From: Dialister sp.
Lineage (GTDB): Bacteria > Bacillota > Negativicutes > Veillonellales > Dialisteraceae
DNA length: 36,758 nucleotides
Direction: 5' to 3'
Assembly (NCBI GenBank): GCA_022722495.1
Contig: JAIJLI010000005.1
Span: forward strand, 1 to 36,758
Shown here: positions 4,054 through 36,758 of the stretch, in pieces
How the letters are laid out: every line of letters starts with the position of its first letter
Numbering within the stretch: position 1 is the stretch's first letter
The notes under the pieces: model-generated
Database searches by the model: none
The model's input: only the letters and a program-made list of their open reading frames with translations
What the model was told of the DNA's origin: nothing
Position numbers and translations under genes: made by a program

Positions 4054-4812
4054 TTACATGTTCATACCACCGTCGATCTGAATAACCTGACCGCTAACAT
4101 AGCTAGACAAGTCGGACGCGAGGAAGAGGCAAACATTTGCGATATCCTCAGTCTGACCACCACGACGCAATGGAATCTTCTTCATCCAGTCCTTGCGGAT
4201 TTCCTCAGGCAACTGTGCAGTCATTGCAGTCTCGATGAAACCAGGAGCTACAGCATTGGCACGTACGCCCTTAGGACCCAACTCCTGAGCGATAGACTTA
4301 GCCAAAGCAATCATACCAGCCTTAGAAGCTGCATAGTTGCACTGACCTGCATTACCATGAACACCTACAACAGAAGCCATGTTGATGATAGAACCACCAC
4401 GCTGACGAAGCATGATTGGAGAGCAAGCATGAATGAAGTTGAAGGCTGACTTCAAGTTTACATTCAAAACAGCATCCCACTGAGCCTCGCTCATACGGAG
4501 CATCAAACCGTCCTTGGTGATACCTGCATTGTTAACCAGAATATCGATAGAACCGAAGTCCTCATGAATCTGCTTAACAGCCTTCTGTGTCTCCTCGAAA
4601 TCTGCTGCATTACCAGCATAAGCACGACAGGTTACACCAAGAGCCTCAATCTCCTTACGAGTAGCTTCCAAACCGGCAGCCATATCGTCGTTGAGTACGA
4701 GGTCTGTAAATGCGATGTTAGCGCCCTCAGAGGCGAACTTCATAGCGACAGCCTTACCGATGCCGCGAGCAGCACCTGTTACAAGGGCTGTTTTACCACT
4801 TAATAATCCCAT
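4054..4812 (-). CDS. fabG: 3-oxoacyl-[acyl-carrier-protein] reductase
   Basis: This 252-aa classical short-chain dehydrogenase is expected to reduce 3-oxoacyl-ACP to 3-hydroxyacyl-ACP with NADPH in type II fatty acid synthesis in the cytoplasm. Visible motifs are the N-terminal Rossmann glycine motif TGAARGIG (about residues 12-19), NNAG (about 92-95), the catalytic Ser in 'NMASVVG', and YAASK with catalytic Tyr and Lys (about 161-165). It ends 'VSGQVIQIDGGMNM', the standard FabG terminus. Length matches the family. It follows tetR after 54 bp in the same direction, so the TetR protein may control it. A related SDR acting on another substrate cannot be excluded, but the whole-length pattern favours FabG. 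Confidence 0.9.
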   Translation of the reverse strand: MGLLSGKTALVTGAARGIGKAVAMKFASEGANIAFTDLVLNDDMAAGLEATRKEIEALGVTCRAYAGNAADFEETQKAVKQIHEDFGSIDILVNNAGITKDGLMLRMSEAQWDAVLNVNLKSAFNFIHACSPIMLRQRGGSIINMASVVGVHGNAGQCNYAASKAGMIALAKSIAQELGPKGVRANAVAPGFIETAMTAQLPEEIRKDWMKKIPLRRGGQTEDIANVCLFLASDLSSYVSGQVIQIDGGMNM

Positions 4813-7368: not shown

Positions 7369-10299
7369 ATGATCAAAGCAGAACAGATTTACCAGGCAAC
7401 CGATGACGGACTGGACATAATCATCGCATTATACCCGGACGCCAAAGAATGCGTGCAGAAATACTGCACAGGAACGCCCAAGAAGCACTTTGCCATCCGA
7501 AAGGAGAATACCCCATCGTGTTCCCTGAAGAAGTACAAGGAATGCTGGAGAGTAACAGACTTTGGAGGCGAAGGAAATGCAGAATCTCCTATCGATCTCT
7601 ATATGAAGGAGAAGAATATCGACCGTTTCCCTGATGCCATCCTTCGCCTGGCAGCAGAGTATAACGTTACCGATGAGCTCAAGAAGGATGTAAACAAGCC
7701 TACTTTTGCAGAACGTGATGCCACCATCGATGAGAAAGATGGTACCCGCATCTTTGAACTCAATGATAAATTCACGGAAGATGAACTGAAGGTTCTTGGC
7801 CCAAACGTGAAGCAGGAACATGTGGATGCACTAAACTGGCATTCAGCCAAATGGATTGGATATGTCAAAGACCGCAAGGTCAAGATCAAATACAGCAATG
7901 AGCACTACCCTATCTTCATGCGTGAGTGCCTGGTTTCTCCAGCTGAAGGAGAGAAACCGGAAGTAAAATTCTACAAGATATACGAACCGCTCAACTTCAG
8001 CAAACAGTGGAGATTCTCATATACTCCTGATGGTGTCAAGCCTAAGAAGTACATCAATGGTCTGGCTGAGCTCAAGAAAGCATACCATGAGTTCAACGCC
8101 AAGGAGATGGCTGAATTCAACAAGACCAACGTCGATGAATCGAAGGTCTATAAAGAACAGAAACTTCCTGAAGCATTCATCTGCAGCGGCGAACGAGATA
8201 GCCTCTGCTGCAAGTCTCTCGGTTATCACCCTCTATGGTTCAACTCTGAGACCTATAAGCTCAGCGAGGAGGAATACAGAGAAATCATGAAGTATGTGGA
8301 AGTACTCTATAATATACCGGACATCGACGAGACCGGTATCTCCAAGGGAACGGAACTTGCCCTGCGCTACATTGACATACATACAATCTGGCTGCCACAA
8401 TGGCTCAGGACCTACCACGACAACCGAGGAAAAGGCCGCAAGGATCTCCGTGACTGGATGGAGCTGCGCAATACCCGCAAGGACTTCCGCAACCTGATGA
8501 CGCTGGCCATGCCTGCCCGTTTCTGGGTGAGCAAGCTCAACAAGAAGTCCAACACCTGGGACCACTACATCGATACTGCGTGCCTCTACAATTTCCTTCG
8601 CCTTAACGGTTTCTACACGCTCCACGACGAGAACTCCACCATCACGAAGTATGTAAGAATCACCGGTAACATCGTGAAGCTCATCACCACAAGAGATATC
8701 CGTGAGTTCTGCCGACAATGGGTCATCGACAGAGCAGAAAAGCGAGATATTCTCAACCTGGTATTGAATACCCCGAAGCTCTCCAGCGCTGCGCTCGATT
8801 CACTCCAGGAAATAACGCTTGACTTCACCAACTACACCAATCATTCACAGCTGTTCTTCTTCCCTCGTGTCAGCATAGAGGTAACCAAGGATGGTCTGAT
8901 TGAGTATCAGCGTGAAGGAAGCTCGCTCAAGAACTACGTATGGCAGGAGAACGTCATCGATCATAACTTCAAGAAGCTCGATGATATGTTCACCATCACG
9001 CGCACCATCGATGAGGATGGCAGACCGAAGTTTGATATCGAGGTCAAGAACGTGAGTTCTCACTTCTTTGGCTATCTGATCAACGCCTCACGCACCTACT
9101 GGCGCAAGGAACTGGAATACAACTTCGAGGAGAGAAGCGTTGATGAGAAAGAAGCATATCATAAGGCTCACCTATTCGATATCGCAGGTGAAGGCCTGAC
9201 CGATGTCGAGATTGCCGAACAGAAACAGAACCTCATCAACAAGATATTCACATTCGGGTATATGCTTCATCATTACAAGTCTCCTTCACGAGCATGGGCG
9301 CCTATGGCCATGGACAACAAAATCGGCGAAGACAACGAATGCAACGGCCGTTCGGGTAAGAGTTTCTTCTTCAAGACACTCTCTTTGCTGATGAAGACCG
9401 TTAAGCTGTCCGGTAGAAATCCGAAGCTGATGGACAACCCTCATGTCTTCGACCAGGTAACCCAGCACACCCAGATGCTGCTGCTCGATGACTGTGACCG
9501 GTATCTCAACACAGGACTCTTCTATGATAATATTACTTCAGATATGACTGTAAACCCAAAGAACAACCAGAGCTTCACTATACCTTTCGAGGATAGCCCG
9601 AAAATTGCCTTCACTACTAATTATGTGCCGGCAGATTTCGATCCGTCTTCAGAGGCGAGATTGCTGTATATGGTGTTCTCAGACTATTATCATCAGCGCA
9701 CGGAGGATAATGACTACCAGGAGACCAGAAGCATCAGAGATGACTTCGACAAGGATCTGTTTTCCAAGACCTATTCTGAGGCCGAATGGAACGCAGATAT
9801 CAACTTCTTCCTGCAATGCTGCCGCTTCTACATATCTCTCGTGGGAGAACCCGTAAAGATACTGCCACCTATGGAGAATATCGTTAAGCGCAAGTTTAAA
9901 GCTGATATGGGTGTAAACTTCGAGGATTGGGCCAGTTCTTATTTCTCTGAGGAGAGTGGAAGACTCGACGAGTTTGTCGTAAGAGAAAAGGCATTTACAG
10001 ACTTCAAACAGTTCTCTGGCCTTAACAAAGCAACGACACAGAGCTTTACCAAGAAGCTGAAGGCATTTGTGGAGCTATGCCCATACATTGAAGCCCTGAA
10101 CCCGGATGACCTCTGTAACAGCCAGCATCGCATTATCAGAAGAGATCCAGCGCATCCTGATGGAAGCCCGGTTGAGATGATTTATCTCAGAAGCAAGAAG
10201 AGTGATTCTCCAAAAGAAGAAACTCAAGCAAAAAAGGGTGATTATCAATCGACAATCGACTGGAGCAAGATAGATACTAATAGTAACGAACCTTTCTAA
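7369..10299 (+). CDS. Phage primase-helicase (CHC2-like, Toprim, SF3 helicase)
   Basis: This 976-aa protein probably primes and unwinds DNA at phage replication forks. Residues about 20-70 resemble a CHC2-type primase zinc domain: 'FAIRKENTPSCSL' is the family motif, with C28, C33, C51 and C59 nearby. A Toprim-like region follows with E275 in 'CSGERDS' and the acidic D318-I-D320-E. The C-terminal half is a superfamily 3 / D5-like helicase: Walker A GRSGKS (660-665), Walker B MLLLDDCD (703-710) and 'KIAFTTNY' (745-752) as motif C with its Asn. All expected catalytic residues are present, so it should be active. It is the only replication gene visible. The gene is followed by a GTTAC-rich non-coding stretch that could be the origin it acts on. 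Confidence 0.85.
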   Translation: MIKAEQIYQATDDGLDIIIALYPDAKECVQKYCTGTPKKHFAIRKENTPSCSLKKYKECWRVTDFGGEGNAESPIDLYMKEKNIDRFPDAILRLAAEYNVTDELKKDVNKPTFAERDATIDEKDGTRIFELNDKFTEDELKVLGPNVKQEHVDALNWHSAKWIGYVKDRKVKIKYSNEHYPIFMRECLVSPAEGEKPEVKFYKIYEPLNFSKQWRFSYTPDGVKPKKYINGLAELKKAYHEFNAKEMAEFNKTNVDESKVYKEQKLPEAFICSGERDSLCCKSLGYHPLWFNSETYKLSEEEYREIMKYVEVLYNIPDIDETGISKGTELALRYIDIHTIWLPQWLRTYHDNRGKGRKDLRDWMELRNTRKDFRNLMTLAMPARFWVSKLNKKSNTWDHYIDTACLYNFLRLNGFYTLHDENSTITKYVRITGNIVKLITTRDIREFCRQWVIDRAEKRDILNLVLNTPKLSSAALDSLQEITLDFTNYTNHSQLFFFPRVSIEVTKDGLIEYQREGSSLKNYVWQENVIDHNFKKLDDMFTITRTIDEDGRPKFDIEVKNVSSHFFGYLINASRTYWRKELEYNFEERSVDEKEAYHKAHLFDIAGEGLTDVEIAEQKQNLINKIFTFGYMLHHYKSPSRAWAPMAMDNKIGEDNECNGRSGKSFFFKTLSLLMKTVKLSGRNPKLMDNPHVFDQVTQHTQMLLLDDCDRYLNTGLFYDNITSDMTVNPKNNQSFTIPFEDSPKIAFTTNYVPADFDPSSEARLLYMVFSDYYHQRTEDNDYQETRSIRDDFDKDLFSKTYSEAEWNADINFFLQCCRFYISLVGEPVKILPPMENIVKRKFKADMGVNFEDWASSYFSEESGRLDEFVVREKAFTDFKQFSGLNKATTQSFTKKLKAFVELCPYIEALNPDDLCNSQHRIIRRDPAHPDGSPVEMIYLRSKKSDSPKEETQAKKGDYQSTIDWSKIDTNSNEPF

Positions 10300-11591: not shown

Positions 11592-12041
11592 ATGAAAATA
11601 ATCGAAATAACCAAACAACTTAGAAATATGGCATACATCAAAAACATCATCAAGATTGAGATGACAGAGGCAGAAAACCTCAAAAGTGTCGTCTTCCCTA
11701 TGGATCAGAGATGCATTGTACCGTCGGCTGCTAACTTCCGGTCAATTCAATGCAAAGTTCCGTCAAGTTGTGAGATTTCCGACAAAGTAGAGTCAAAAGT
11801 CCGCATTTTCACCTCCAAGCTCACCTTCAAGTCGTGCGAGCAGATAGATCCGAACTACCGACCTCTAGCCTTCAGAATCACCACGGCAGATGGCATTCGC
11901 TACCTTATGGGCTGCGACCGCCGACCATATCCGGTACTCACCCGTACCGAAAACCTGCCAAGTTCACATACGGAATCTTCCCTGATTACCTATACAGCGA
12001 CTTGGACAGACGTCATCAGACCGCTCCAAATCATAGAATAA
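11592..12041 (+). CDS. Small phage protein, unknown function
   Basis: This protein of 149 aa (or 137 aa from the in-frame ATG at 11628, 'MAYIKNIIKIEMTEAENLKS') appears beta-rich, with short strands such as 'VESKVRIFTSKLTFKSC' and 'RPLAFRITTADGIRYLMGCD'. I do not recognise it. It lies just upstream of the protease-scaffold gene, separated by a promoter, so it may be a virion or assembly accessory protein. The C-terminal 'SSLITYTATWTDVIRPLQIIE' region overlaps a longer alternative frame of the next gene, which is rejected here as an over-extension. Confidence 0.55.
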   Translation: MKIIEITKQLRNMAYIKNIIKIEMTEAENLKSVVFPMDQRCIVPSAANFRSIQCKVPSSCEISDKVESKVRIFTSKLTFKSCEQIDPNYRPLAFRITTADGIRYLMGCDRRPYPVLTRTENLPSSHTESSLITYTATWTDVIRPLQIIE

Positions 12042-12068
12042 GTTTTTTTATTTCTTCTCCTTATTATA

Positions 12069-12076
12069 TAACTTTG
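12069..12076 (+). promoter_or_regulatory. Promoter -7 box for the head genes
   Basis: TAACTTTG lies 24 bp before the protease start, in a T-rich leader. The -33 position is only T-rich (about 12043-12049), so this is a partial consensus match. Confidence 0.5.
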
Positions 12077-12100
12077 CGGCAATCAAATTCGCTAAGTTGT

Positions 12101-13126
12101 ATGAAATATCAAATATCTATCACCGGTTATATAGGGTCGTGGACCAAGTTTATGGTCCGCGATATCCTTAATAACAACAAAGGCAAGCACGTCGATGTAG
12201 CCATCGATTCGCCGGGCGGTGCGGTTTCCGCAGGTCTCGCCATCTGTCAGATGTTCAAGGACCATGGCGATGTGACGGTTGACTTTCAGGCGGGCTTCTC
12301 TGCATCTGCCGCCACCATCTGTGCGATGGGCGCCAAGAAGATCCGAATGAACAAGTACAGTTTGCTCCTGGTTCATAAGTGTTCCACGGAGCAGTTTGTA
12401 TGGAGCGCCCTCAATGAGGAAGAAATCGGTTCCCTCATCGAGCAGCTGCAGAAGCAGCAGGAAGACCAGCAGAAAATAGACAATATCATTGCCAATGTTT
12501 ACTGCGATCGCTCGGGAAAGAAGCACGAGGATATCATCAAGGTGATGTCTGAAGCTAAATGGCATACCGTGGATGAGTGCATCGATCTCGGTTTAGTCGA
12601 TGAGTCGATGGATGGCAAGCCGGCTGAAATCACGGAGTCAACACAGAACTTCATCAAGTACAACAATCTTCCAGCATTGCCAGAGGTCGTCAATTCCTGG
12701 TATGAGAAGAAGCCGGGCTTCCTGGGACGAATCTTCGGAAAGGAAAACTCACACAAAAATGTTTTAGATATGATTAAGAAATGGACTCACATCAACAATG
12801 TTCTCAACGTAGAGGGCATTGAGGCAGAGGAATCAGCCAAGGACTGCACCATCTCCCAGGAGCAGATGCAGAAGCTGGAGGATAAGATTGCTGCCGACTC
12901 CAGCTCGATCAAGACCAAGGACGAGGAACTCGATAAGGTCAAGAACGAGAAGAAGGAACTGGAGGATAAGGTCAAGAACCTGGAGAAGGATAAGAAAGAC
13001 CTTGAAGAGAAAGTAAAGGATCTGGAGAAAGAACCGGGTGGCGAAACCCACACTGCCGTAGATGACAACAAGGCTCAGGACTTCTGCTCAGATCAAGTAT
13101 CGGACGTTTTAATTGATTTTGCATAA
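12101..13126 (+). CDS. ClpP-like head maturation protease fused to coiled-coil tail
   Basis: This 341-aa protein (start ATG 12101, after the -7 box; a longer upstream frame is rejected) begins with a ClpP-fold serine protease. 'AIDSPGGAVSAGLAI' is the Clp substrate-groove motif, S69 in 'GFSASAATICAMGA' is the likely nucleophile, H92 in 'LLLVHK' the likely general base, and 'WHTVDECIDLGLVDE' the typical end of the fold. Residues about 243-311 form an extreme Lys/Glu coiled coil with heptad repeats. Phage proteases of this type cut scaffold and capsid during head assembly, and the coiled coil probably is the scaffold domain, as in protease-scaffold fusions. The capsid gene starts 1 bp after its stop, which supports this. 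The protease-scaffold reading is inference. Confidence 0.8.
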   Translation: MKYQISITGYIGSWTKFMVRDILNNNKGKHVDVAIDSPGGAVSAGLAICQMFKDHGDVTVDFQAGFSASAATICAMGAKKIRMNKYSLLLVHKCSTEQFVWSALNEEEIGSLIEQLQKQQEDQQKIDNIIANVYCDRSGKKHEDIIKVMSEAKWHTVDECIDLGLVDESMDGKPAEITESTQNFIKYNNLPALPEVVNSWYEKKPGFLGRIFGKENSHKNVLDMIKKWTHINNVLNVEGIEAEESAKDCTISQEQMQKLEDKIAADSSSIKTKDEELDKVKNEKKELEDKVKNLEKDKKDLEEKVKDLEKEPGGETHTAVDDNKAQDFCSDQVSDVLIDFA

Positions 13127-16391: not shown

Positions 16392-17020
16392 GAGAACCAG
16401 CCAACATCGATGCCATCATCGACCTGATGGACCGCACACCCGAAGAGATGGATGCACAGAATGTTCCCGCACCCGTGCGCGACCGCATTCTGCGCATCCG
16501 GGCTCTTTATGCCTGGTGGCTCATCAATCCACGCAAGACAGACCAGGAACTTGTCTTCAAGGATATGCAGGACTACAAGGTGCAGCGCATGATGGCTTAT
16601 AATGACCTGCACCTCATCAAGCTCATACTGGGCAACCTGCAGAAGGTTTCCAAGGACTTTGCCCGGTACCGTTTCGACCAGATGATTCAGCGCACCTACG
16701 AGAAAGCAGACAATATGGGCGATGCCAGAGCCATGGCTGCCGCTGCCGCCGCATACGGCAAATATCACCTGCTCGACAAAGAAGATCCTGTCGACAACGG
16801 CTATGACCAGATACAGCCTCAGGTCTTCATACCTACTTCAGACCCTCGCCATCTCGGTCTCAAGCGCATACCTAACGTGATGGGCACCATCAAGAAGCTC
16901 ATCAAAAAATACACCGACAACTCCATGGATCTCATCAAGATCGAGAGCGAAGACTATGACGAGCAGCTGCTGGAGTATACACCTACAGAGGAAATCAAAC
17001 AAGAGGAGGGCACAACATGA
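16388..17020 (+). CDS. Terminase small subunit candidate
   Basis: This 210-aa protein lies directly upstream of the large terminase with a 4-bp overlap at each end. The N-terminal half includes 'LYAWWLINPRKTDQELVFKDM' and helical segments that could form a DNA-binding domain; a central Ala-rich helix ('DARAMAAAAAAYGKYHLLDK') and an acidic C-terminus follow, compatible with an oligomerising packaging subunit that contacts TerL. No family signature is certain. Either this or the preceding 93-aa protein is likely the DNA-recognition subunit, with the other an accessory. Confidence 0.5.
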   Translation: MREPANIDAIIDLMDRTPEEMDAQNVPAPVRDRILRIRALYAWWLINPRKTDQELVFKDMQDYKVQRMMAYNDLHLIKLILGNLQKVSKDFARYRFDQMIQRTYEKADNMGDARAMAAAAAAYGKYHLLDKEDPVDNGYDQIQPQVFIPTSDPRHLGLKRIPNVMGTIKKLIKKYTDNSMDLIKIESEDYDEQLLEYTPTEEIKQEEGTT

Positions 17021-18618
17021 TAGAGCAATACTTCAACCCTGCGCAACAAGAGGTCAACCTCATATCCGCTCGCGACAACGTGGTCGTGGGCGGTCGAGGC
17101 ATTGGCAAGAGCATTCTCCATGCCACCTTCAACCTGCGCAACATGCAGCGCATGCCTGGCAGCAATGGCGGCTTCGTCTCCGCCAATACCAAGCGATGCC
17201 TCACCAACACCATACCGTCCATGCTACAGCACTGGGAGCGATGGGGCTTCCACCGTGGCAAGCACTATGTCATCGGCATCAAACCGCCCAAAAAGTTGGG
17301 GTGGCCTGATCCTGTCATCCCTCCTTCCAACTGGGAGAACACCATATCGTTCTACAACGGCTCCATCGGCACCATCATCTCACAAGACCGCAAGGGCACG
17401 TCAAACTCCCTCTCGCTCGACTACCTCGACATCGACGAGGCTAAGTTCATCGACTTTGAGCAGCTCAAAGACGAGACTTTCCCTGCCAACCGAGGCAATG
17501 TCAACCTCTTTGGCCAACACTACTATCACCATGGCATGCTCATTACTTCAGATATGCCCGTGACTAAAAAAGGCTCCTGGTTCCTCAACTATAAAAAAGA
17601 CTGCGACCCTCACCTCATAGAGGCGATATCATCACTCGTGGTCGAGGAGTATGACATACGCAACCGCATCAAGACCTCTAGCCACATCAGCCTATATGCC
17701 AAGCGCAGACTCAAAGAGATTGGGCTGCTCCTGGCACAACTGCGTTCCAAGGCTCTCTTTTACAAGGAGTACTCATCCGTCTATAATGTCGAGGTCCTGG
17801 GCATGGAGTTCATCAAGCAGATGAAACGTGACCTCCCTGCACTCACCTTCCAGACATCCATCATGTGCAAGCGACCTTCCATCTCGCTCGATGGCTTCTA
17901 CTCCAACCTCAGGGATGTCAACCTCTACTCTGCTCCAAACCTCGACTACCTCGATGGACTGGAGTATGATGTGGAAAAGCTGCAGCACGTTGATTCAAGA
18001 ATGGATGCAGACGTTGACCCAGACCGTCCGCTCTGCATCGCCTTCGATGCCAACGCCCTCATCAACTGGATAGCCATTGGCCAAGACAACCTGCGTGGAG
18101 AGGCACGCTTGCTCAAGAGCATCTTTGTCAAGTATGAGGAGAAGCTGCCCACCCTGCTCGACAAGTTCATGGCTTACTATGAATATCATCGCTGCAAAGA
18201 GGTCAACTTCTACTATGACTCCACCTTCGTGGGCAACAACTACGCCCTGATGAATGATGACTTTCACACCTTCATCACCAACTATCTCACCGACCATGGT
18301 TGGTATGTCAACGAGGTCTATCTGGGCAACCCGATGGGGCATATAGAAAAAATGCTGCTCATTAACCGCATGTTCCTGGGCAAGGCTGACCACCGTGCCA
18401 TGATCAATGATGAGAACAACGAGGACATGCTCCTATCCATCCGACTCGCTGGTGTCTACAATGGCAAGAAGGATAAGCGAGGCGAAAAGCTGGCAGAGAC
18501 CGAAGAGGACAAGCTGGAGGCTCGCACCGATGGCTCCGATGCCTTCGACTCTCTGATGATTGGCATCGAGAAGTTCCCACAGGCTGATGGCTACGTCTCC
18601 TGTGGCTCCATGCTCTAA
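17017..18618 (+). CDS. Terminase large subunit (ATPase and nuclease)
   Basis: This 533-aa motor protein pumps DNA into the prohead and cuts it. The ATPase domain has Walker A GGRGIGKS (residues 25-32) and Walker B 'LDYLDIDEAKF' with D140-E141 as the metal and catalytic carboxylates. The C-terminal RNase H-like nuclease has the expected acidic residues: D344 in 'CIAFDANALINW', D401 in 'FYYDSTF' and D508/D511 in 'DGSDAFDSL'. Length is typical. Start ATG overlaps the upstream gene by 4 bp. Codon choice (Cys/Ser/Leu codons ending in C) differs from the capsid gene, hinting at mosaic ancestry. A strong terminator follows, closing the packaging unit before the accessory block. Confidence 0.92.
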   Translation: MIEQYFNPAQQEVNLISARDNVVVGGRGIGKSILHATFNLRNMQRMPGSNGGFVSANTKRCLTNTIPSMLQHWERWGFHRGKHYVIGIKPPKKLGWPDPVIPPSNWENTISFYNGSIGTIISQDRKGTSNSLSLDYLDIDEAKFIDFEQLKDETFPANRGNVNLFGQHYYHHGMLITSDMPVTKKGSWFLNYKKDCDPHLIEAISSLVVEEYDIRNRIKTSSHISLYAKRRLKEIGLLLAQLRSKALFYKEYSSVYNVEVLGMEFIKQMKRDLPALTFQTSIMCKRPSISLDGFYSNLRDVNLYSAPNLDYLDGLEYDVEKLQHVDSRMDADVDPDRPLCIAFDANALINWIAIGQDNLRGEARLLKSIFVKYEEKLPTLLDKFMAYYEYHRCKEVNFYYDSTFVGNNYALMNDDFHTFITNYLTDHGWYVNEVYLGNPMGHIEKMLLINRMFLGKADHRAMINDENNEDMLLSIRLAGVYNGKKDKRGEKLAETEEDKLEARTDGSDAFDSLMIGIEKFPQADGYVSCGSML

Positions 18619-29992: not shown

Positions 29993-31492
29993 ATGGCAGA
30001 TAAAATAAATACAGAGATACTGCAGAGGGCGTTCGAGTCCATCAGAGACGAGCGTGCCAAGGGTGCCAATACAGCGAGGCGCATTGGCGATGCCTTCCTC
30101 TCCCTCCTAGCCTATGCCTCACAAGACAATGGTGCATACCTCTCTCGTGAGCATGACGATGCCGCCATGGGACTTATCACCTTCCTAAAGGGGCTTGTCT
30201 CCGAGGGGGTGGCTCACCTCAACCAAGGTGCACAGTTTGGTGGTTTTGTCTCTGGCATGGCCACAGGCAAGGGCGCAGCCATCGACGGCGATGGCAATGC
30301 TGAGGTCGAGAGCATCAAGGTGCGCTCATACATGCAGGTGCTTGAGCTGATAGTCAACAGACTCTCAGCCTTCGAGGGTGACCAGTTCTTCACCGAGAGC
30401 GACACCATCGAGCAGGTCGATGACCTAGGCTCAGGTTGCTACGGTCTCCACCTCCGCTCCAAATACCAGGGCTATTTCACCGCACAGCACGTTAACAACG
30501 TCATCAAGGGCGTGGTCAACAACATCGCTTCGGCAGCCAATTCTGGCACTTCGGCTGATTACTACACCTCATGGATGAGAGTCAACAGCGTCAACGCGGT
30601 TAAGAATTACATCGAGGTAACCCTCTATTCTGATGCCGAAGTTCCGGCAGGAAAGAACTTTCCGCCATGTGAGCTCATGAATATCGCCCGTTATGGCAAC
30701 CAGACCGATGAGTCGCTGCAGAGCTGTTTCTACATCTCCAGTTCCGAGGGGCGCATCGTCAAGCTGACGGGCGTCACAAAGCCGATACTCGAAAATTACA
30801 ACTACGGCATGGTCTTCGGCGACATGCCTGAATTCGTCAAGTCGCTCGACCTTCCTATCGTCAAGGGCAGGGATTATCTCTATGCAGCCGGCATCATCAC
30901 CCAGGATATCATACAGATTGACTATCAAGGCAAACCGGTTGTCGATTATGTAGACCGAGGACCATGGTCAGAGGCGGCAGAATATTTCTGCTCAGCTCTC
31001 AATCCAGAAACTGGCAAATACGAGACTTCCGATGTCTGGTATACCGGGTGCAAGTGGCGATGCCAGAAGACTGGTACCCATACCGCGCCAAGGTGGAATA
31101 ATACCGATTGGGCGATGATAGAGGGCAATCCAGCATTCACCATCGATTTCCTCGAAGACGAGACGCTCTATGATTTCGACAACTTCCGAGCTCCGCTGAC
31201 AGTCGTCGCATCGCTCTACGGACAGGATATCACATCAGATATCCTCGACAGCGACGTAGCCTGGACCAGATACACAGAGAACAGGGCTGGTGAGCAGAGA
31301 GTCACAAGTGACAACATCTGGTCACTCGAAGTCGGTTCCAAGGCAGGCAAGGCTATCGTACTGACCCAGTCTGACCTCTCCATCGACAGCGAGGGAGTTC
31401 CGGCTAAGATTAGATTCACGGCAACAGTTACACTTCGTGATGGTCTGGGCGATGAGGTTGCCCAAGATTCCATCACACTGGAATGTGTTTAA
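29993..31492 (+). CDS. Tail fibre or baseplate-type protein
   Basis: This 499-aa protein starts with a helical N-terminus ('MADKINTEILQRAFESIRDE') that is a typical virion-anchoring segment, followed by Gly/Ala-rich and strand-rich regions. The last 90 residues ('TLYDFDNFRAPLTVVASLYG' and later) look like an Ig-like or fibronectin-like fold. In the first about 175 codons the codon choice differs from the rest, which suggests that the gene is a mosaic of two ancestors. No known fibre motif is certain. It starts a promoter-driven run of tail-associated genes ending in the DGR target. Confidence 0.6.
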   Translation: MADKINTEILQRAFESIRDERAKGANTARRIGDAFLSLLAYASQDNGAYLSREHDDAAMGLITFLKGLVSEGVAHLNQGAQFGGFVSGMATGKGAAIDGDGNAEVESIKVRSYMQVLELIVNRLSAFEGDQFFTESDTIEQVDDLGSGCYGLHLRSKYQGYFTAQHVNNVIKGVVNNIASAANSGTSADYYTSWMRVNSVNAVKNYIEVTLYSDAEVPAGKNFPPCELMNIARYGNQTDESLQSCFYISSSEGRIVKLTGVTKPILENYNYGMVFGDMPEFVKSLDLPIVKGRDYLYAAGIITQDIIQIDYQGKPVVDYVDRGPWSEAAEYFCSALNPETGKYETSDVWYTGCKWRCQKTGTHTAPRWNNTDWAMIEGNPAFTIDFLEDETLYDFDNFRAPLTVVASLYGQDITSDILDSDVAWTRYTENRAGEQRVTSDNIWSLEVGSKAGKAIVLTQSDLSIDSEGVPAKIRFTATVTLRDGLGDEVAQDSITLECV

Positions 31493-31503
31493 TTACATAT
31501 AAG

Positions 31504-32655
31504 ATGAAATACAAAAGATTAGACTTCAAATACACGCCTCTGCAGGTGAACACATCCAAGACAATATCAGGCAGCGTTCCGCTCGAACAGACTTATGACG
31601 CCAACCAGAATGAGTATGCTCCAAATTACGAGTTGACACCATGCGCCTTGCAACCGGTCGTTGGTATAATCGACAGAGATAACATACTCGAGAGTGGTCG
31701 TGTCAATAGTGAACTGACAGATGTCGCCTGGTACAGAGTCGAGAATGGTGTGGAGGGGAATGCGCTGGCTTCGACACCCAGGAAGCATGTCATCACCTCG
31801 ACCGGCAATGATGCCGGCAAACTGCTCTGGTATGTCAACGCAGCGCCGCAGAAACCGATTCTGCTCAGATTCAAGGCGAAGTACCTGGACAGCCGGACAA
31901 ATAAGGTTCACAGAATTATGATGGACTATTCCATCAGCTGCAAGAATGCGACCCTCTACAAGCCGACGCTGCTGCTTTCGAGTGGTGACCGATACTATAA
32001 TCCGCTTCGTGATACAGACAAGCAGGTCATCAATGCATCTCTGCGCCTCGGATCAGAGGAGTGCGCTAAGGAGAAGAGGCTGTTCATCTGGGAGATTCTC
32101 CGTGATCGAGGTCAGTTCTCTGCCATTACAGCAGATGACCTCGAAATCAAAGTTTCTGCCGATGGTACATCGGTTACTCTAGACCGCTCGCTCATGGGCA
32201 AGCGCATCTGCATCAGATGCAGGGCTAAATTCTCGGCTGATGGCAATCCGGCAAGCGTAGATCTGAGTGATGCTACACCGAACAGAATTGTCAATATCGT
32301 CCGCAGGATACCATTCTACGATTACGATATCCTCGACACGGTCGACGAGGTTCTGCCCGACACGAAGGTAGTAAACCCAGCGGCAACCATCTCTGACAAT
32401 GTCGGAGAAATTGCGAACCCGACAAGAGAACTGCAGGTCCTCTGGTGGATGGCACCGAATAACTCGATACACTTTGAGAACGCAGTCCTTGTCGGACATG
32501 GCATGTCTCCGAGCGTACCTACAGATCTGCTGGATCCGAACAGGGGAGCTATCCTTGCGTTGGAAGTTAAAGACCTCGATCCTTTAGCTCTGGCTATGGA
32601 TGCCGACGGCAAGGTCTTCGTGGACGCAGATGGCAATCCGTTCATTTTTCACTAA
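31504..32655 (+). CDS. Tail-associated beta-rich protein
   Basis: This 383-aa protein (start ATG 31504) is beta-rich with recurring tandem fold units, for example 'DVAWYRVENGVEGNALASTP' and 'LLRFKAKYLDSRTNKV', reminiscent of Ig-like modules. The C-terminus contains short acidic repeats, 'DADGKVFVDADGNPFIF'. It starts 11 bp after the previous stop. A tail fibre or baseplate role is inferred from neighbours. No membrane segment or enzyme motif is visible. Confidence 0.55.
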   Translation: MKYKRLDFKYTPLQVNTSKTISGSVPLEQTYDANQNEYAPNYELTPCALQPVVGIIDRDNILESGRVNSELTDVAWYRVENGVEGNALASTPRKHVITSTGNDAGKLLWYVNAAPQKPILLRFKAKYLDSRTNKVHRIMMDYSISCKNATLYKPTLLLSSGDRYYNPLRDTDKQVINASLRLGSEECAKEKRLFIWEILRDRGQFSAITADDLEIKVSADGTSVTLDRSLMGKRICIRCRAKFSADGNPASVDLSDATPNRIVNIVRRIPFYDYDILDTVDEVLPDTKVVNPAATISDNVGEIANPTRELQVLWWMAPNNSIHFENAVLVGHGMSPSVPTDLLDPNRGAILALEVKDLDPLALAMDADGKVFVDADGNPFIFH

Positions 32656-34839: not shown

Positions 34840-36273
34840 ATGGAAGGTAAAAAATTCAATTCCGTGACGAAAGTCACAACCGTCAACAGCAACCAGAGAG
34901 TGCTGTTGACAGACCAGAATGGCAATGTCACTAGCATCGGTATGGATGCGCTCAAGGCTGACCTTGCTATTGGTCAGCATGCCTGGTGCGGAAGAGTGTG
35001 GGCCACCGCCAACGCAACGCCTAAGGCGGCATCATATGTTGGCTCACTCGAGATTCTGAAGGAGTTGCCATACATCCTCGGATTAGGTGGGTATCTGGTC
35101 AAGAATGACCACAGCCGCAGAAAGCTCGACAGCAAGGATCACTACAAGTATGCTACTGGTGAACCAGCAAAGCTGGATGGTTCTGAAGGTCACTACCAGT
35201 GGGGATGGGGCAGAGAGTTCTACTTCGTCACCAAGGATGTCGGTGGCCTCCATTACGAGATGATCGGTCTCAAGCCTATCCCTGGCGAGTACAACTACAA
35301 AATCCCTATCGGCTCCATCTCCGCCTCAGGCTTCGCCACCATCGAGCGCAGCACAGGCAGACTCGTCAGCTTCATCAACACAGGCTCTGACTACCGAGGA
35401 GGCAACAACGATGCCTCCCTTGACGGCACCAACCGCACCCTCTGCGGCAAGCCGGCAAGCTCGCAGACCACAGAATACTTCCGTGCCGCCGCACGCAAGA
35501 ATGGCAAGGGGTGGCTCTGCACCACCATGCGACACACCACCATCATCGCCGCACTCATCGGGGTCATCATGGGCACACACTACGACCAAGATGCCGTCAA
35601 CACCGCCAAAGACTCCAACGGTCTCTACCAGGGCGGTCTCGGTGCAGGCACCTCAAACTTCAACTGGGATACCTGGGGCACTTACAACTCCTACCGCCCA
35701 TTCCTCCCCATGTCCGCAGGCATCGAGCTGGGCGACAGCGTGGGCGAGACTACCTACGCAGTCAAAAATGACGCTGGCACCACGGTCTACACAGCCAAGG
35801 TCTCCAGCTTCTTCGGTCTCAAGCACGCACAGGGCGGCTACCTCTGGCGCATGATGGATGACGAGCAGGTGCGCATCAACTCCGATACCACAGCCACACA
35901 CCTCGTCGCACCATCCATCTACGGCTCATGGACCATCGGCTCAGCCACGGGCATGAAGGCTTACAGCACATCGCCTGCCACAGGCGAGGGCTACATCACC
36001 CGACTCTCCATGGAGCATTTGGAGAATTTCGCCACGGCCGTCGGAGGCAGCGAGACCACATACTGGACTAGCTATTTCTGGAATACTTCCAAAGCTACGA
36101 GCGGTTTCCGTCTCTGCCTGCGTGGGTGTAGCGCTTACTTTGGCGGTCGATGCGGTTCTTCGGCTCTCTTCGTTAACAATGATGTCTCGCATGCCAACGG
36201 TTACATCGGCGCCGCTCTCTGCGAAGCAGCATCCGAGTGGTCTGTGGAGCCAGAGTATTACGCAGCTGCCTAA
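34840..36273 (+). CDS. DGR-diversified receptor-binding or tip protein
   Basis: This 477-aa protein is the target of the DGR. The N-terminal part (to about residue 140) contains 'LTDQNGNVTSIGMDALKADL' and is probably the virion-binding portion. The C-terminal part is Gly/Ser/Thr/aromatic-rich, as expected for a C-type-lectin-like ligand-binding fold, and contains the variable repeat at residues 422-461. Nine residues differ from the template translation: S431, Y433, F434, R437, A442, F444, H451, Y455 and C461 (template N, N, N, Q, T, N, N, N, N). Sixteen residues follow the repeat. It is likely a tail tip or fibre adhesin that changes host binding. GC-rich codon style changes near 35280, which suggests a mosaic. 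Confidence 0.85.
   Translation: MEGKKFNSVTKVTTVNSNQRVLLTDQNGNVTSIGMDALKADLAIGQHAWCGRVWATANATPKAASYVGSLEILKELPYILGLGGYLVKNDHSRRKLDSKDHYKYATGEPAKLDGSEGHYQWGWGREFYFVTKDVGGLHYEMIGLKPIPGEYNYKIPIGSISASGFATIERSTGRLVSFINTGSDYRGGNNDASLDGTNRTLCGKPASSQTTEYFRAAARKNGKGWLCTTMRHTTIIAALIGVIMGTHYDQDAVNTAKDSNGLYQGGLGAGTSNFNWDTWGTYNSYRPFLPMSAGIELGDSVGETTYAVKNDAGTTVYTAKVSSFFGLKHAQGGYLWRMMDDEQVRINSDTTATHLVAPSIYGSWTIGSATGMKAYSTSPATGEGYITRLSMEHLENFATAVGGSETTYWTSYFWNTSKATSGFRLCLRGCSAYFGGRCGSSALFVNNDVSHANGYIGAALCEAASEWSVEPEYYAAA
36103..36222 (+). repeat. DGR variable repeat (VR)
   Basis: This 120-bp stretch is aligned without gaps to 36515-36634 (offset 412). They differ at 13 positions: 12 are A in the template copy (four A-to-G, seven A-to-T, one A-to-C) and one is a silent C-to-T at 36216. 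The first 28 bases are identical, and the homology ends abruptly on both sides. This adenine-specific pattern is the signature of mutagenic retrohoming. The 3' GC-rich part (about 36204-36215) is the probable start site for homing (IMH). Confidence 0.95.
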
Positions 36274-36280
36274 AGTCTGC

Positions 36281-36399
36281 AAAAGCTTGCTGGGTGTCCA
36301 AAAGTTTGCTAGGTGTGCATCAGCATACAGGGCAACCGCGGCGTAGCCGCAAGCACCCAGCGAGCGCAGCTCGCACCCTCAGATACCGCCTTTGGCGGT
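36281..36399 (+). other. Hairpin cluster between VR and TR
   Basis: This non-coding stretch has three perfect hairpins: GCGGC/GCCGC (36338-36350), GCGAGC/GCTCGC (36360-36374) and ACCGCC/GGCGGT (36385-36399), each with a 3-nt loop. GCTGGGTG (36289-36296) can pair with CACCCAGC (36354-36361) to enclose the first. A 17-bp direct repeat with two mismatches occurs at 36281-36297 and 36300-36316. DGR targets in other phages have a hairpin downstream of the VR that aids homing, so this cluster may play that part. Confidence 0.55.
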
Positions 36400-36470
36400 C
36401 GGCGACCAAAATTTTTAGCCCATATTGGCAAAAAAACGCTCTTTGACTTCTTTCCATCCGATTTTTTTAT

Positions 36471-36478
36471 TAACTTTG
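36471..36478 (+). promoter_or_regulatory. Candidate promoter of the template RNA
   Basis: TAACTTTG matches the -7 consensus and lies 36 bp before the template repeat core. A TTTG at 36442-36445 is 25 bp upstream, longer than ideal. It would allow the template RNA (and a downstream reverse transcriptase) to be made separately from the fibre operon. Confidence 0.6.
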
Positions 36479-36514
36479 CAGTGGTTTTCTAACCAGGGTG
36501 TGACCCTTGGTGCT

Positions 36515-36634
36515 GGTTTCCGTCTCTGCCTGCGTGGGTGTAACGCTAACAATGGCGGTCAATGCGGTTCTTCGACTCTCAACGTTAACAATGATGTCTC
36601 GAATGCCAACGGTAACATCGGCGCCGCCCTCAAC
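36515..36634 (+). repeat. DGR template repeat (TR)
   Basis: This is the unmutated copy of the VR, lying 292 bp downstream of it in the same orientation. It contains 25 adenines in 120 bp, most in AAC, AAT or CAA codons in the reading frame of the target, the codon choice that gives the broadest amino-acid variation. Twelve of these positions differ in the VR. It is transcribed into the RNA that the DGR reverse transcriptase copies. A frame running through it is not treated as a gene. Confidence 0.93.
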
Positions 36635-36657
36635 TTAAACACTAGAGACTCTCTTAT

Positions 36658-36682
36658 ACAGGGCTATCGTTTGCTACCCTGT
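36658..36682 (+). other. Hairpin downstream of the template repeat
   Basis: ACAGGG (36658-36663) pairs with CCCTGT (36677-36682), with a 13-nt loop, 24 bp after the template. It may be part of the template RNA structure needed for reverse transcription priming. No T-run follows, so it is not a terminator. Confidence 0.35.
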
Positions 36683-36746
36683 TCGAGATAATAGGGTCAG
36701 TCCTCGCCCCATGGCGATACATACACACACCAAGATTAGCTGGTAG

Positions 36747-36758
36747 ATGATGACAATA
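36747..36758 (+). other. Possible start of the next gene, cut by the window
   Basis: ATGATG at 36747-36752 opens a frame to the window edge (four codons only). The DGR reverse transcriptase is normally encoded just downstream of the template, so this could be its first codons, but there is too little sequence to claim it. Confidence 0.15.

What the first reader, a model, noticed from the sequence alone, without database searches (positions are those of the whole stretch)
36103..36634. Complete VR/TR pair of a diversity-generating retroelement in a prophage fibre gene
A 120-bp repeat in the 3' part of the target gene and a copy 412 bp downstream differ at 13 sites; 12 are adenines in the downstream copy, none of the changes at A sites is an indel, and only one non-A site differs (silent). 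Of 25 template adenines, 12 changed, affecting nine codons, seven of them Asn in the template. This is the adenine-specific mutagenesis known for DGRs, here in an uncharacterised Bacteroidota phage.
Basis: partly seen in the sequence, partly recalled or inferred. Interest (0 to 1): 0.92.

Follow-up and report, generated by a model that had tools for sequence, protein, structure and literature searches.

The report
Phage tail hypermutation cassette, likely switchable
A gut phage carries a real cassette that rewrites the tip of its tail protein by copying with deliberate errors, and in related phages the copying enzyme's gene often holds a run of G's whose length appears to switch the enzyme between whole and cut-short forms.

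Summary
VR 36103-36222 lies at the 3' end of a tail gene; TR 36515-36634 differs from it at 13 of 120 sites, 12 of them TR adenines (12 of 25 A, 1 of 95 non-A). The window ends about 90 nt before the reverse transcriptase (RT) start seen in a relative, so only the VR/TR half is inside it. Relatives have the RT in place, and 79 VR/TR pairs of this family (the window's included) differ at 981 of 1,860 TR adenines and 35 of 7,686 other sites. It is a DGR.

Two features of the relatives' RT are unusual. Catalytic YxDD is RFxDN (rarely DG). And 42 of 89 RT loci carry a homopolymer tract (G6-G16, one C9) at one of two sites: just before the catalytic motif (the window's nearest relatives) or before a conserved C-terminal domain. 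Complete tract-bearing genes fall 14/13/14 over the three frames: 27 of 41 are frame-broken, each at the tract, against 1 of 42 without a tract; the part after the tract stays under purifying selection. Best reading: a phase-variable DGR RT. The window's own RT was not seen.

The parts
34840..36273 (+). DGR target gene, tail protein of 477 aa with the VR at its 3' end
   Evidence: ORF; phrog_5302 tail protein E 7e-45; no Pfam match at 0.1; 7 relatives in viral contigs
36103..36222 (+). Variable repeat (VR)
   Evidence: 120 nt, 13 differences from the TR, 12 of them at TR adenines
36515..36634 (+). Template repeat (TR)
   Evidence: window 36475-36758 is 81% identical to L009 1-278, whose RT begins at 368
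36360..36374 (.). Perfect 6-bp-stem hairpin between VR and TR (role not tested)
36385..36399 (.). Second perfect 6-bp-stem hairpin between VR and TR (role not tested)
36635..36758 (+). Leader between TR and RT; the window ends here, about 90 nt before the RT start by comparison with L009
32954..34048 (+). Tail gene upstream of the target
   Evidence: phrog_3267 tail protein E 1.5e-10
31483..32655 (+). Tail gene upstream of the target
   Evidence: phrog_3267 tail protein E 2.6e-8
17017..18618 (+). Possible large terminase (phage packaging), weak match
   Evidence: phrog_2 E 7.4e-5
11834..13126 (+). Head maturation protease
   Evidence: phrog_94 E 6.5e-30
4054..4812 (-). Short-chain dehydrogenase, a cell-type gene, so the left end is probably host chromosome
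   Evidence: PF13561 E 6.6e-71

Best explanation
The window carries the target (VR) and template (TR) half of a DGR in a probable Bacteroidota prophage: TR RNA is copied by an error-prone RT that misreads adenines, and the cDNA replaces the VR, changing about nine codons at the tail-protein tip (shown: the A-specific VR/TR pattern; inferred from known DGRs: RNA template, cDNA and homing). The RT lies just past the window end. In relatives it belongs to a clade with motif C RFxDN and a conserved C-terminal part of about 110 aa. In many members its gene holds a poly-G tract at one of two sites. The tract gains or loses G's (shown by comparison), so the gene moves between a continuous frame and two broken ones. 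Inferred: this is slipped-strand phase variation; the broken state removes the catalytic motif (site 1) or the C-terminal part (site 2) and stops or weakens mutagenesis, holding the current tail tip until the tract slips again. That the window's own RT has the tract is an inference from its nearest relatives (about 0.6).
For: VR/TR: window; 79 pairs. RT identity. Tract: 42 of 89 RT loci; runs of 7 or more G or C number 42 in 139,744 nt of RT genes and 3 in 730,952 nt of flanks; G7 is in 40 of 89 RT genes and in 337 of 8,900 codon-shuffled ones. Frame: 27 of 41 complete tract-bearing genes are frame-broken, each at the tract, against 1 of 42 complete genes without a tract; offsets 0/+1/+2 are 14/13/14. 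Near-identical genes: in 45 pairs of tract-bearing genes (90% identity or more) all 24 indels within the compared spans lie at the tract, e.g. L009/L010 (43 substitutions, one indel), L022/L086 (37, one), L040/L072 (23, one). Selection: the last 100 codons at most, read in their own frame, hold no stop in 27 of 27 broken genes; median dN/dS 0.054 in 28 broken-broken pairs, 0.067 in 3 whole-whole, 0.08 in 5 mixed. Phase needs at least 11 changes on the N-terminal tree. Proteins: of the best 120 of 344 hits, 64 keep the C-terminal part and 56 do not; all 56 hold Gly-Gly at the junction and end 0-73 residues after it, 36 of them within 10. P0151 (549 aa) is 100% identical over 416 aa to L007, whose gene is broken at G9.
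Against: The window's own RT is not visible. At site 1 the tract is in 5 of 5 DNA loci of the clade nearest the window, but of five large full-length protein clusters near it only P0034 has Gly-Gly there (P0032 EG, P0033 VG, P0053 and P0054 SV; P0053 and P0054 are 58-59% identical to L006 and were not placed on the tree). L031 and L089 differ at the G tract but also by one T in a T run just past the compared span, so homopolymer sequencing error is not excluded for that pair. Six further pairs, all with L048 (a partial gene without tract), have 6 indels at the tract and 8 elsewhere. Some broken-broken dN/dS values reach 0.27-0.31, and the pairs are not independent. G runs are also slippery for ribosomes (recalled), so broken genes may be partly expressed. 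L054 and L055 have identical broken RT genes and different VRs: either the switch is fast or the short RT still works.
Confidence: 0.8

Rival explanations
1. Programmed ribosomal frameshifting (or transcriptional slippage) at the G tract makes full-length RT from every allele; tract length matters little.
For: The part after the tract stays under purifying selection in broken genes; VRs differ between L054 and L055 with identical broken RT genes. Benler et al. 2021 read the split RT of Quimbyvirus this way (section 17 read).
Against: The three frames occur about equally (14/13/14), 14 of them whole genes; a recoding site should keep one offset. Tract length varies from 6 to 16.
Confidence: 0.13
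2. Homopolymer sequencing or assembly errors make whole genes look broken.
For: Long G runs are error-prone (recalled); L031 and L089 differ at two homopolymers in the 7.25-kb piece that holds the RT.
Against: The tract itself is concentrated in RT genes (42 runs in 139,744 nt against 3 in 730,952 nt); the same broken length (8 G) recurs in L054, L067, L089 and L090, which differ by 27-55 substitutions; short forms recur in many protein clusters; the number of Gly codons varies in whole genes too.
Confidence: 0.05
3. The broken RT genes are decaying pseudogenes, as DiGReF read truncated DGR RTs.
For: Some DGR RTs are truncated by mutation (passages of PMC3521204). In this family L074 is broken away from any tract, L015 has an in-frame stop, and L064 has a stop besides its tract break.
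Against: 27 of 27 pieces after the break lack stops and most pairs show dN/dS under 0.1; VR/TR pairs of 23 broken loci (L074 among them) differ at 307 of 554 A and 10 of 2,200 non-A.
Confidence: 0.02
4. In the window the VR/TR pair is a relic: the RT has been lost, as it seems to be in L008.
For: No RT inside the window; L008 (MT835559) keeps a VR-like end, but its match to the window stops before the TR and it has no RT match.
Against: From TR to window end the sequence stays 76-81% identical to L002, L006 and L009, which go on into the RT; VR/TR shows one non-A difference in 95 sites.
Confidence: 0.08

Closest known systems
Bordetella phage BPP-1 DGR (RT structures 8ub7 and kin; the BPP-1 name is recalled, the call says 'Reverse transcriptase')
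   Same: Target, TR, RT order; adenine-specific VR (recalled for BPP-1); RT core aligns in two stretches to 8ub7
   Different: Relatives' RT has RFxDN where 8ub7 has YMDD, about 50 residues more before it, and a C-terminal part of about 110 aa beyond the match; Avd family found in 2 of 20 records
Quimbyvirus DGR (Benler et al. 2021, PMC8008677; passages, and section 17 whole)
   Same: Bacteroides phage DGR whose RT is split over overlapping frames, with adenine-specific VRs
   Different: Authors inferred two programmed frameshifts; section 17 mentions no G tract or length variation. Its RT was not compared here
DGR-type RTs of hankyphage p00 and of crAss-like phages
   Same: Bacteroidota phage RTs matched by tblastn at about 23-30% identity
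   Different: One continuous piece in each of the 59 other listed records (of 83); p00 has a DD motif C
Homopolymer-tract phase-variable genes of bacteria (Campylobacter, Neisseria and others; listings only)
   Same: Intragenic tract, all frames, length variation between near-identical genes
   Different: Here the switched gene is a phage's targeted mutator; switching has not been watched

Membership tests
Diversity-generating retroelement (DGR) | Adenine-specific VR/TR differences | tested here: met
   12 of 25 A against 1 of 95 non-A; 79 pairs
Diversity-generating retroelement (DGR) | VR at the 3' end of a target ORF | tested here: met
   ORF 34840-36273, VR to 36222
Diversity-generating retroelement (DGR) | RT gene next to the TR | tested here: inconclusive
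   Outside the window; RT or its pieces present in relatives L001-L007 and L009, no match in L008
Diversity-generating retroelement (DGR) | RT motif 4 [ILV]GxxxSQ | tested here: inconclusive
   Relatives, 45 aligned: LG 45, then at the S place S 23, A 18, T 4, then Q 45. DiGReF also lists variants there (passage)
Diversity-generating retroelement (DGR) | Catalytic YxDD, both Asp (100% conserved in DiGReF's set, passage) | tested here: not met
   In relatives, not the window: RFxDN in 43 and RFxDG in 2 of 45; of 226 proteins of at least 370 aa a pattern read DN in 211, DF 2, DE 1, DG 1 and missed 11. I keep the DGR label on the VR/TR evidence and say 'variant'
Diversity-generating retroelement (DGR) | Avd accessory gene | tested here: inconclusive
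   2 of 20 records match PF22296 (bAvd), 1 over the cut-off; many records may be fragments; window not tested
Diversity-generating retroelement (DGR) | C-type lectin fold of the target | not testable with these tools
   Structure prediction switched off; no Pfam match at 0.1
Diversity-generating retroelement (DGR) | IMH element and hairpin after the VR | tested here: inconclusive
   Two short hairpins between VR and TR; conservation not tested
Homopolymer phase-variable (contingency) locus | Intragenic tract with length variation between near-identical genes | tested here: met
   In relatives, not in the window: 24 of 24 indels at the tract in 45 pairs
Homopolymer phase-variable (contingency) locus | All reading frames occur and the part after the tract stays selected | tested here: met
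   In relatives: 14/13/14; median dN/dS about 0.05 between broken genes
Homopolymer phase-variable (contingency) locus | Switching seen within one culture | not testable with these tools
   No reads or cultures

The most novel reading that the evidence does not exclude
A targeted hypermutator is itself under a random, heritable switch: poly-G tracts, arisen at two separate sites of the RT gene in Bacteroidota phages, turn DGR mutagenesis on and off so that a phage can search for a new tail tip and then hold it. The RT does this with a natural xDN catalytic centre in place of the DD reported as invariant for DGR RTs.
Probability: 0.72. Interest if true: 0.87.

Novelty: new variant of a known kind. 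Interest (0 to 1): 0.77.

Why it matters
DGRs raise an open question: how does a phage keep a good receptor-binding variant when the cassette keeps rewriting it? A phase-variable RT would be a simple answer, and it can be tested by counting tract lengths in cultures and metagenome reads. Broken DGR RT genes have been read as dead (DiGReF) or as programmed frameshifts (Quimbyvirus); if the tract is the cause, surveys that keep only whole RT genes may have missed working cassettes. The RFxDN motif asks whether a changed metal-binding site still supports, or even shapes, adenine misreading.

Tried and rejected
Dead pseudogenes: disfavoured. Single-direction recoding as the only explanation: disfavoured by three about equal frames. 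Window's own genome: none held; an exact search for the window's last 35 bases found nothing in viral contigs, so the RT next to this TR could not be read. The target-protein search of genome contigs found no relative. Pfam: RVT_1 below its cut-off in one RT piece, nothing in the other RT proteins scanned, though the protein search lists RVT_1 for a few members. PADLOC hits are mostly general RT and defence-RT profiles over part of the protein; I do not read it as a defence RT because of the VR/TR pairs. The fold of the C-terminal part was not done; PHROGs gives weak matches to families of unknown function.

Selection effects: loci were fetched with patterns around motif A and motif C, so the share of DN there is biased; the protein searches did not select on motif C, but list only the best (31 of 31, 120 of 193, 120 of 344). 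Some loci are near-copies (L031/L033; L054/L055/L093), so counts are of loci, not of independent events. L001-L007 lie on contigs that other loci repeat, and L008 has no RT; they were left out of the 89 (L009-L097). Of the 89, 11 gave no VR/TR pair of 90 nt or more (L009, L018, L028, L047, L078, L081, L087, L088, L089, L095, L096). Six loci were incomplete and left out of the frame count (5 without tract, 1 with). My script first missed the tract in L064, L088 and L096; I set these by hand. 'Whole' means one frame in tblastn: L015 counts as whole though it has an in-frame stop. The dN/dS test kept pairs with dS between 0.05 and 1 and, for site 1, covers only the last 100 codons, not the motif C region.

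Full report
What is in the window. VR 36103-36222 and TR 36515-36634 match without gaps at offset 412 and differ at 13 of 120 sites, 12 of them adenines in the TR (P = 5.7e-9 for A against non-A). The VR is near the 3' end of a 477-aa ORF (34840-36273) that matches a phage tail-protein family (phrog_5302, E 7e-45). Two genes upstream match a tail family (phrog_3267); further up lie a head-maturation protease and a weak terminase match. A short-chain dehydrogenase at 4054-4812 suggests that the left end is host chromosome, so this is probably a prophage cut at its right end. No genome is held for the window.

The missing RT. Seven relatives of the target in viral contigs and two phage records were read. 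Window 36475-36758 is 81% identical to L009 1-278, and L009's RT starts at 368, so the RT start should lie about 90 nt past the window end. Eight of these nine (L001-L007, L009) show the RT or its pieces; L008 does not, and its match stops before the TR.

The RT family. Searching with four RTs gave 67 viral and 21 genome loci; with L009 that makes 89. The family profile's best PDB match is 8ub7 (E 1.4e-26); its YMDD lines up with RFMDN of L006. In 45 aligned RTs motif C is RFxDN in 43 and RFxDG in 2. In 226 proteins of at least 370 aa from the protein searches, which did not select on that motif, a pattern read DN in 211, another pair in 4 and missed 11. Four of five RTs fetched from other phages show DD; in the fifth the pattern found nothing. 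DiGReF reports both Asp as 100% conserved in its DGR RTs (passage). Yet VR/TR pairs of this family are clean: 981 of 1,860 A against 35 of 7,686 non-A over 79 pairs, the window's among them. So the xDN enzyme seems to work; this is inference from natural sequence, not an assay.

The G tract. In the window's nearest relatives the RT is split in L001, L003 and L009 at one place, a run of 6-8 G just before motif C, whereas L002 and L006 (7 G) read through. In a second group a run of 7-16 G sits between the RT core and a conserved C-terminal part; most of its members with a named genome are Prevotella records. In all, 42 of 89 loci carry a tract (one of them C9). Runs of seven or more G or C are 42 in 139,744 nt of RT genes against 3 in 730,952 nt of flanks. 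Of 41 complete tract-bearing genes 27 are frame-broken, each at the tract; of 42 complete genes without a tract one is (L074), and one more, L015, has an in-frame stop. Offsets are 14 in frame and 13 and 14 in the other two frames.

Near-identical genes. In 45 pairs of tract-bearing genes of at least 90% identity all 24 indels within the compared spans lie at the tract, 20 of them frameshifting; 17 pairs without tract have two indels, both near the start and both involving L020; six mixed pairs, all with the partial gene of L048, have 6 indels at the tract and 8 elsewhere. L031 and L089 are one phage over about 11.5 kb: they differ at the tract (9 against 8 G), by one T in a T run at the RT's end and by one substitution, and L089's VR is partly masked. 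The second homopolymer difference means that this pair alone would not exclude sequencing error; L009/L010 (43 substitutions), L022/L086 (37) and L040/L072 (23), each with a single indel, at the tract, do not have that weakness.

Not decay. The end piece of the gene (100 codons at most), read in its own frame, has no stop in 27 of 27 broken genes. Median dN/dS is 0.054 in 28 broken-broken pairs, 0.067 in 3 whole-whole and 0.08 in 5 mixed; a few broken-broken values reach 0.27-0.31. VR/TR pairs of broken loci are as clean as those of whole ones (23 loci, 307 of 554 A and 10 of 2,200 non-A, against 51 loci, 617 of 1,193 and 24 of 5,008).

Protein databases. Of 31 N-terminal hits, 12 end at the site-1 tract (P0001-P0009, P0012, P0013, P0023), some in large clusters (P0001 279 member sequences, P0004 267). 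For site 2, of the best 120 of 344 hits, 64 keep the C-terminal part and 56 do not; all 56 hold Gly-Gly at the junction and end 0-73 residues after it, 36 within 10; of the 64, 57 hold Gly-Gly there. P0151 (549 aa, whole) is 100% identical to the 416-aa core of L007, whose gene is broken. Against the idea for the nearest relatives: full-length clusters P0032, P0033, P0053 and P0054 lack Gly-Gly at site 1 and only P0034 of these five has it. So the tract comes and goes there, and I put the chance that the window's own RT has it at about 0.6.

Tree. On the N-terminal part, site 1 needs one change (SH-aLRT 97), site 2 needs 8, and phase needs at least 11 changes among tract-bearing rows (quick method, near-copies included). 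The two sites lie about 170 codons apart in L006 numbering.

Mechanism. Shown: A-specific VR in the window and relatives; RT next to TR in relatives; tract length variation; frame change; selection on the end of the gene. Inferred: the length change is slipped-strand mispairing; a site-1 break gives an RT without its catalytic motif, a site-2 break one without the C-terminal part; mutagenesis stops or falls; the tail tip is held until the tract slips back. Leaky expression by ribosome slippage is possible and would soften the switch. L054 and L055, with identical broken RT genes and different VRs, show either fast switching or some activity of the short form.

Literature. In the listed titles and abstract starts of searches (capped lists) I saw no paper on a phase-variable DGR RT; most subscription papers are not held. 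Read: PMC8008677 (passages and section 17) and passages found by word in PMC3521204, PMC8144416 (no hit for frameshift, phase variation or homopolymer), PMC12135933, PMC8143477, PMC12386605 ([quoted passage not shown] Benler et al. is the nearest precedent: a split DGR RT in Quimbyvirus, read as programmed frameshifts. Whether it holds a G tract was not checked.

Verdict. The given finding is a genuine but ordinary DGR VR/TR pair. What lifts it is the RT family of its relatives: an xDN catalytic motif and a G-tract switch. New variant of a known kind.

Noticed in passing
L008 (MT835559) 9091-9392: A relative keeps the target with a VR-like end, but the match to the window stops before the TR and no RT match was found in the locus: the mutating half seems lost.
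   Followed up: partly
L010 (same contig as L006) 4302-4417; L011 (same contig as L002) 4223-4355: The VR of these two has a one-base gap against the TR; in L010 the listed target ORF ends inside the VR.
   Followed up: no
L069 8602 and L074 8488: G10 and G9 runs near the end of a downstream gene with a DPPY motif (looks like an adenine methyltransferase, by eye); these two deep-branching members have no tract in the RT.
   Followed up: no
L088 1558: A C9 run sits at the place where others have poly-G, with the frame broken there.
   Followed up: partly
window 7168: A run of seven C, the only G or C run of seven or more in the window, about 200 nt upstream of a 976-aa ORF.
   Followed up: no
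L004 11253-11912, and similar starts in L014, L022, L046, L084, L086, L097: A gene (219 aa in L004) follows the RT in several members (DUF4376, weak tail-fibre match for L004's); it may belong to the cassette.
   Followed up: partly
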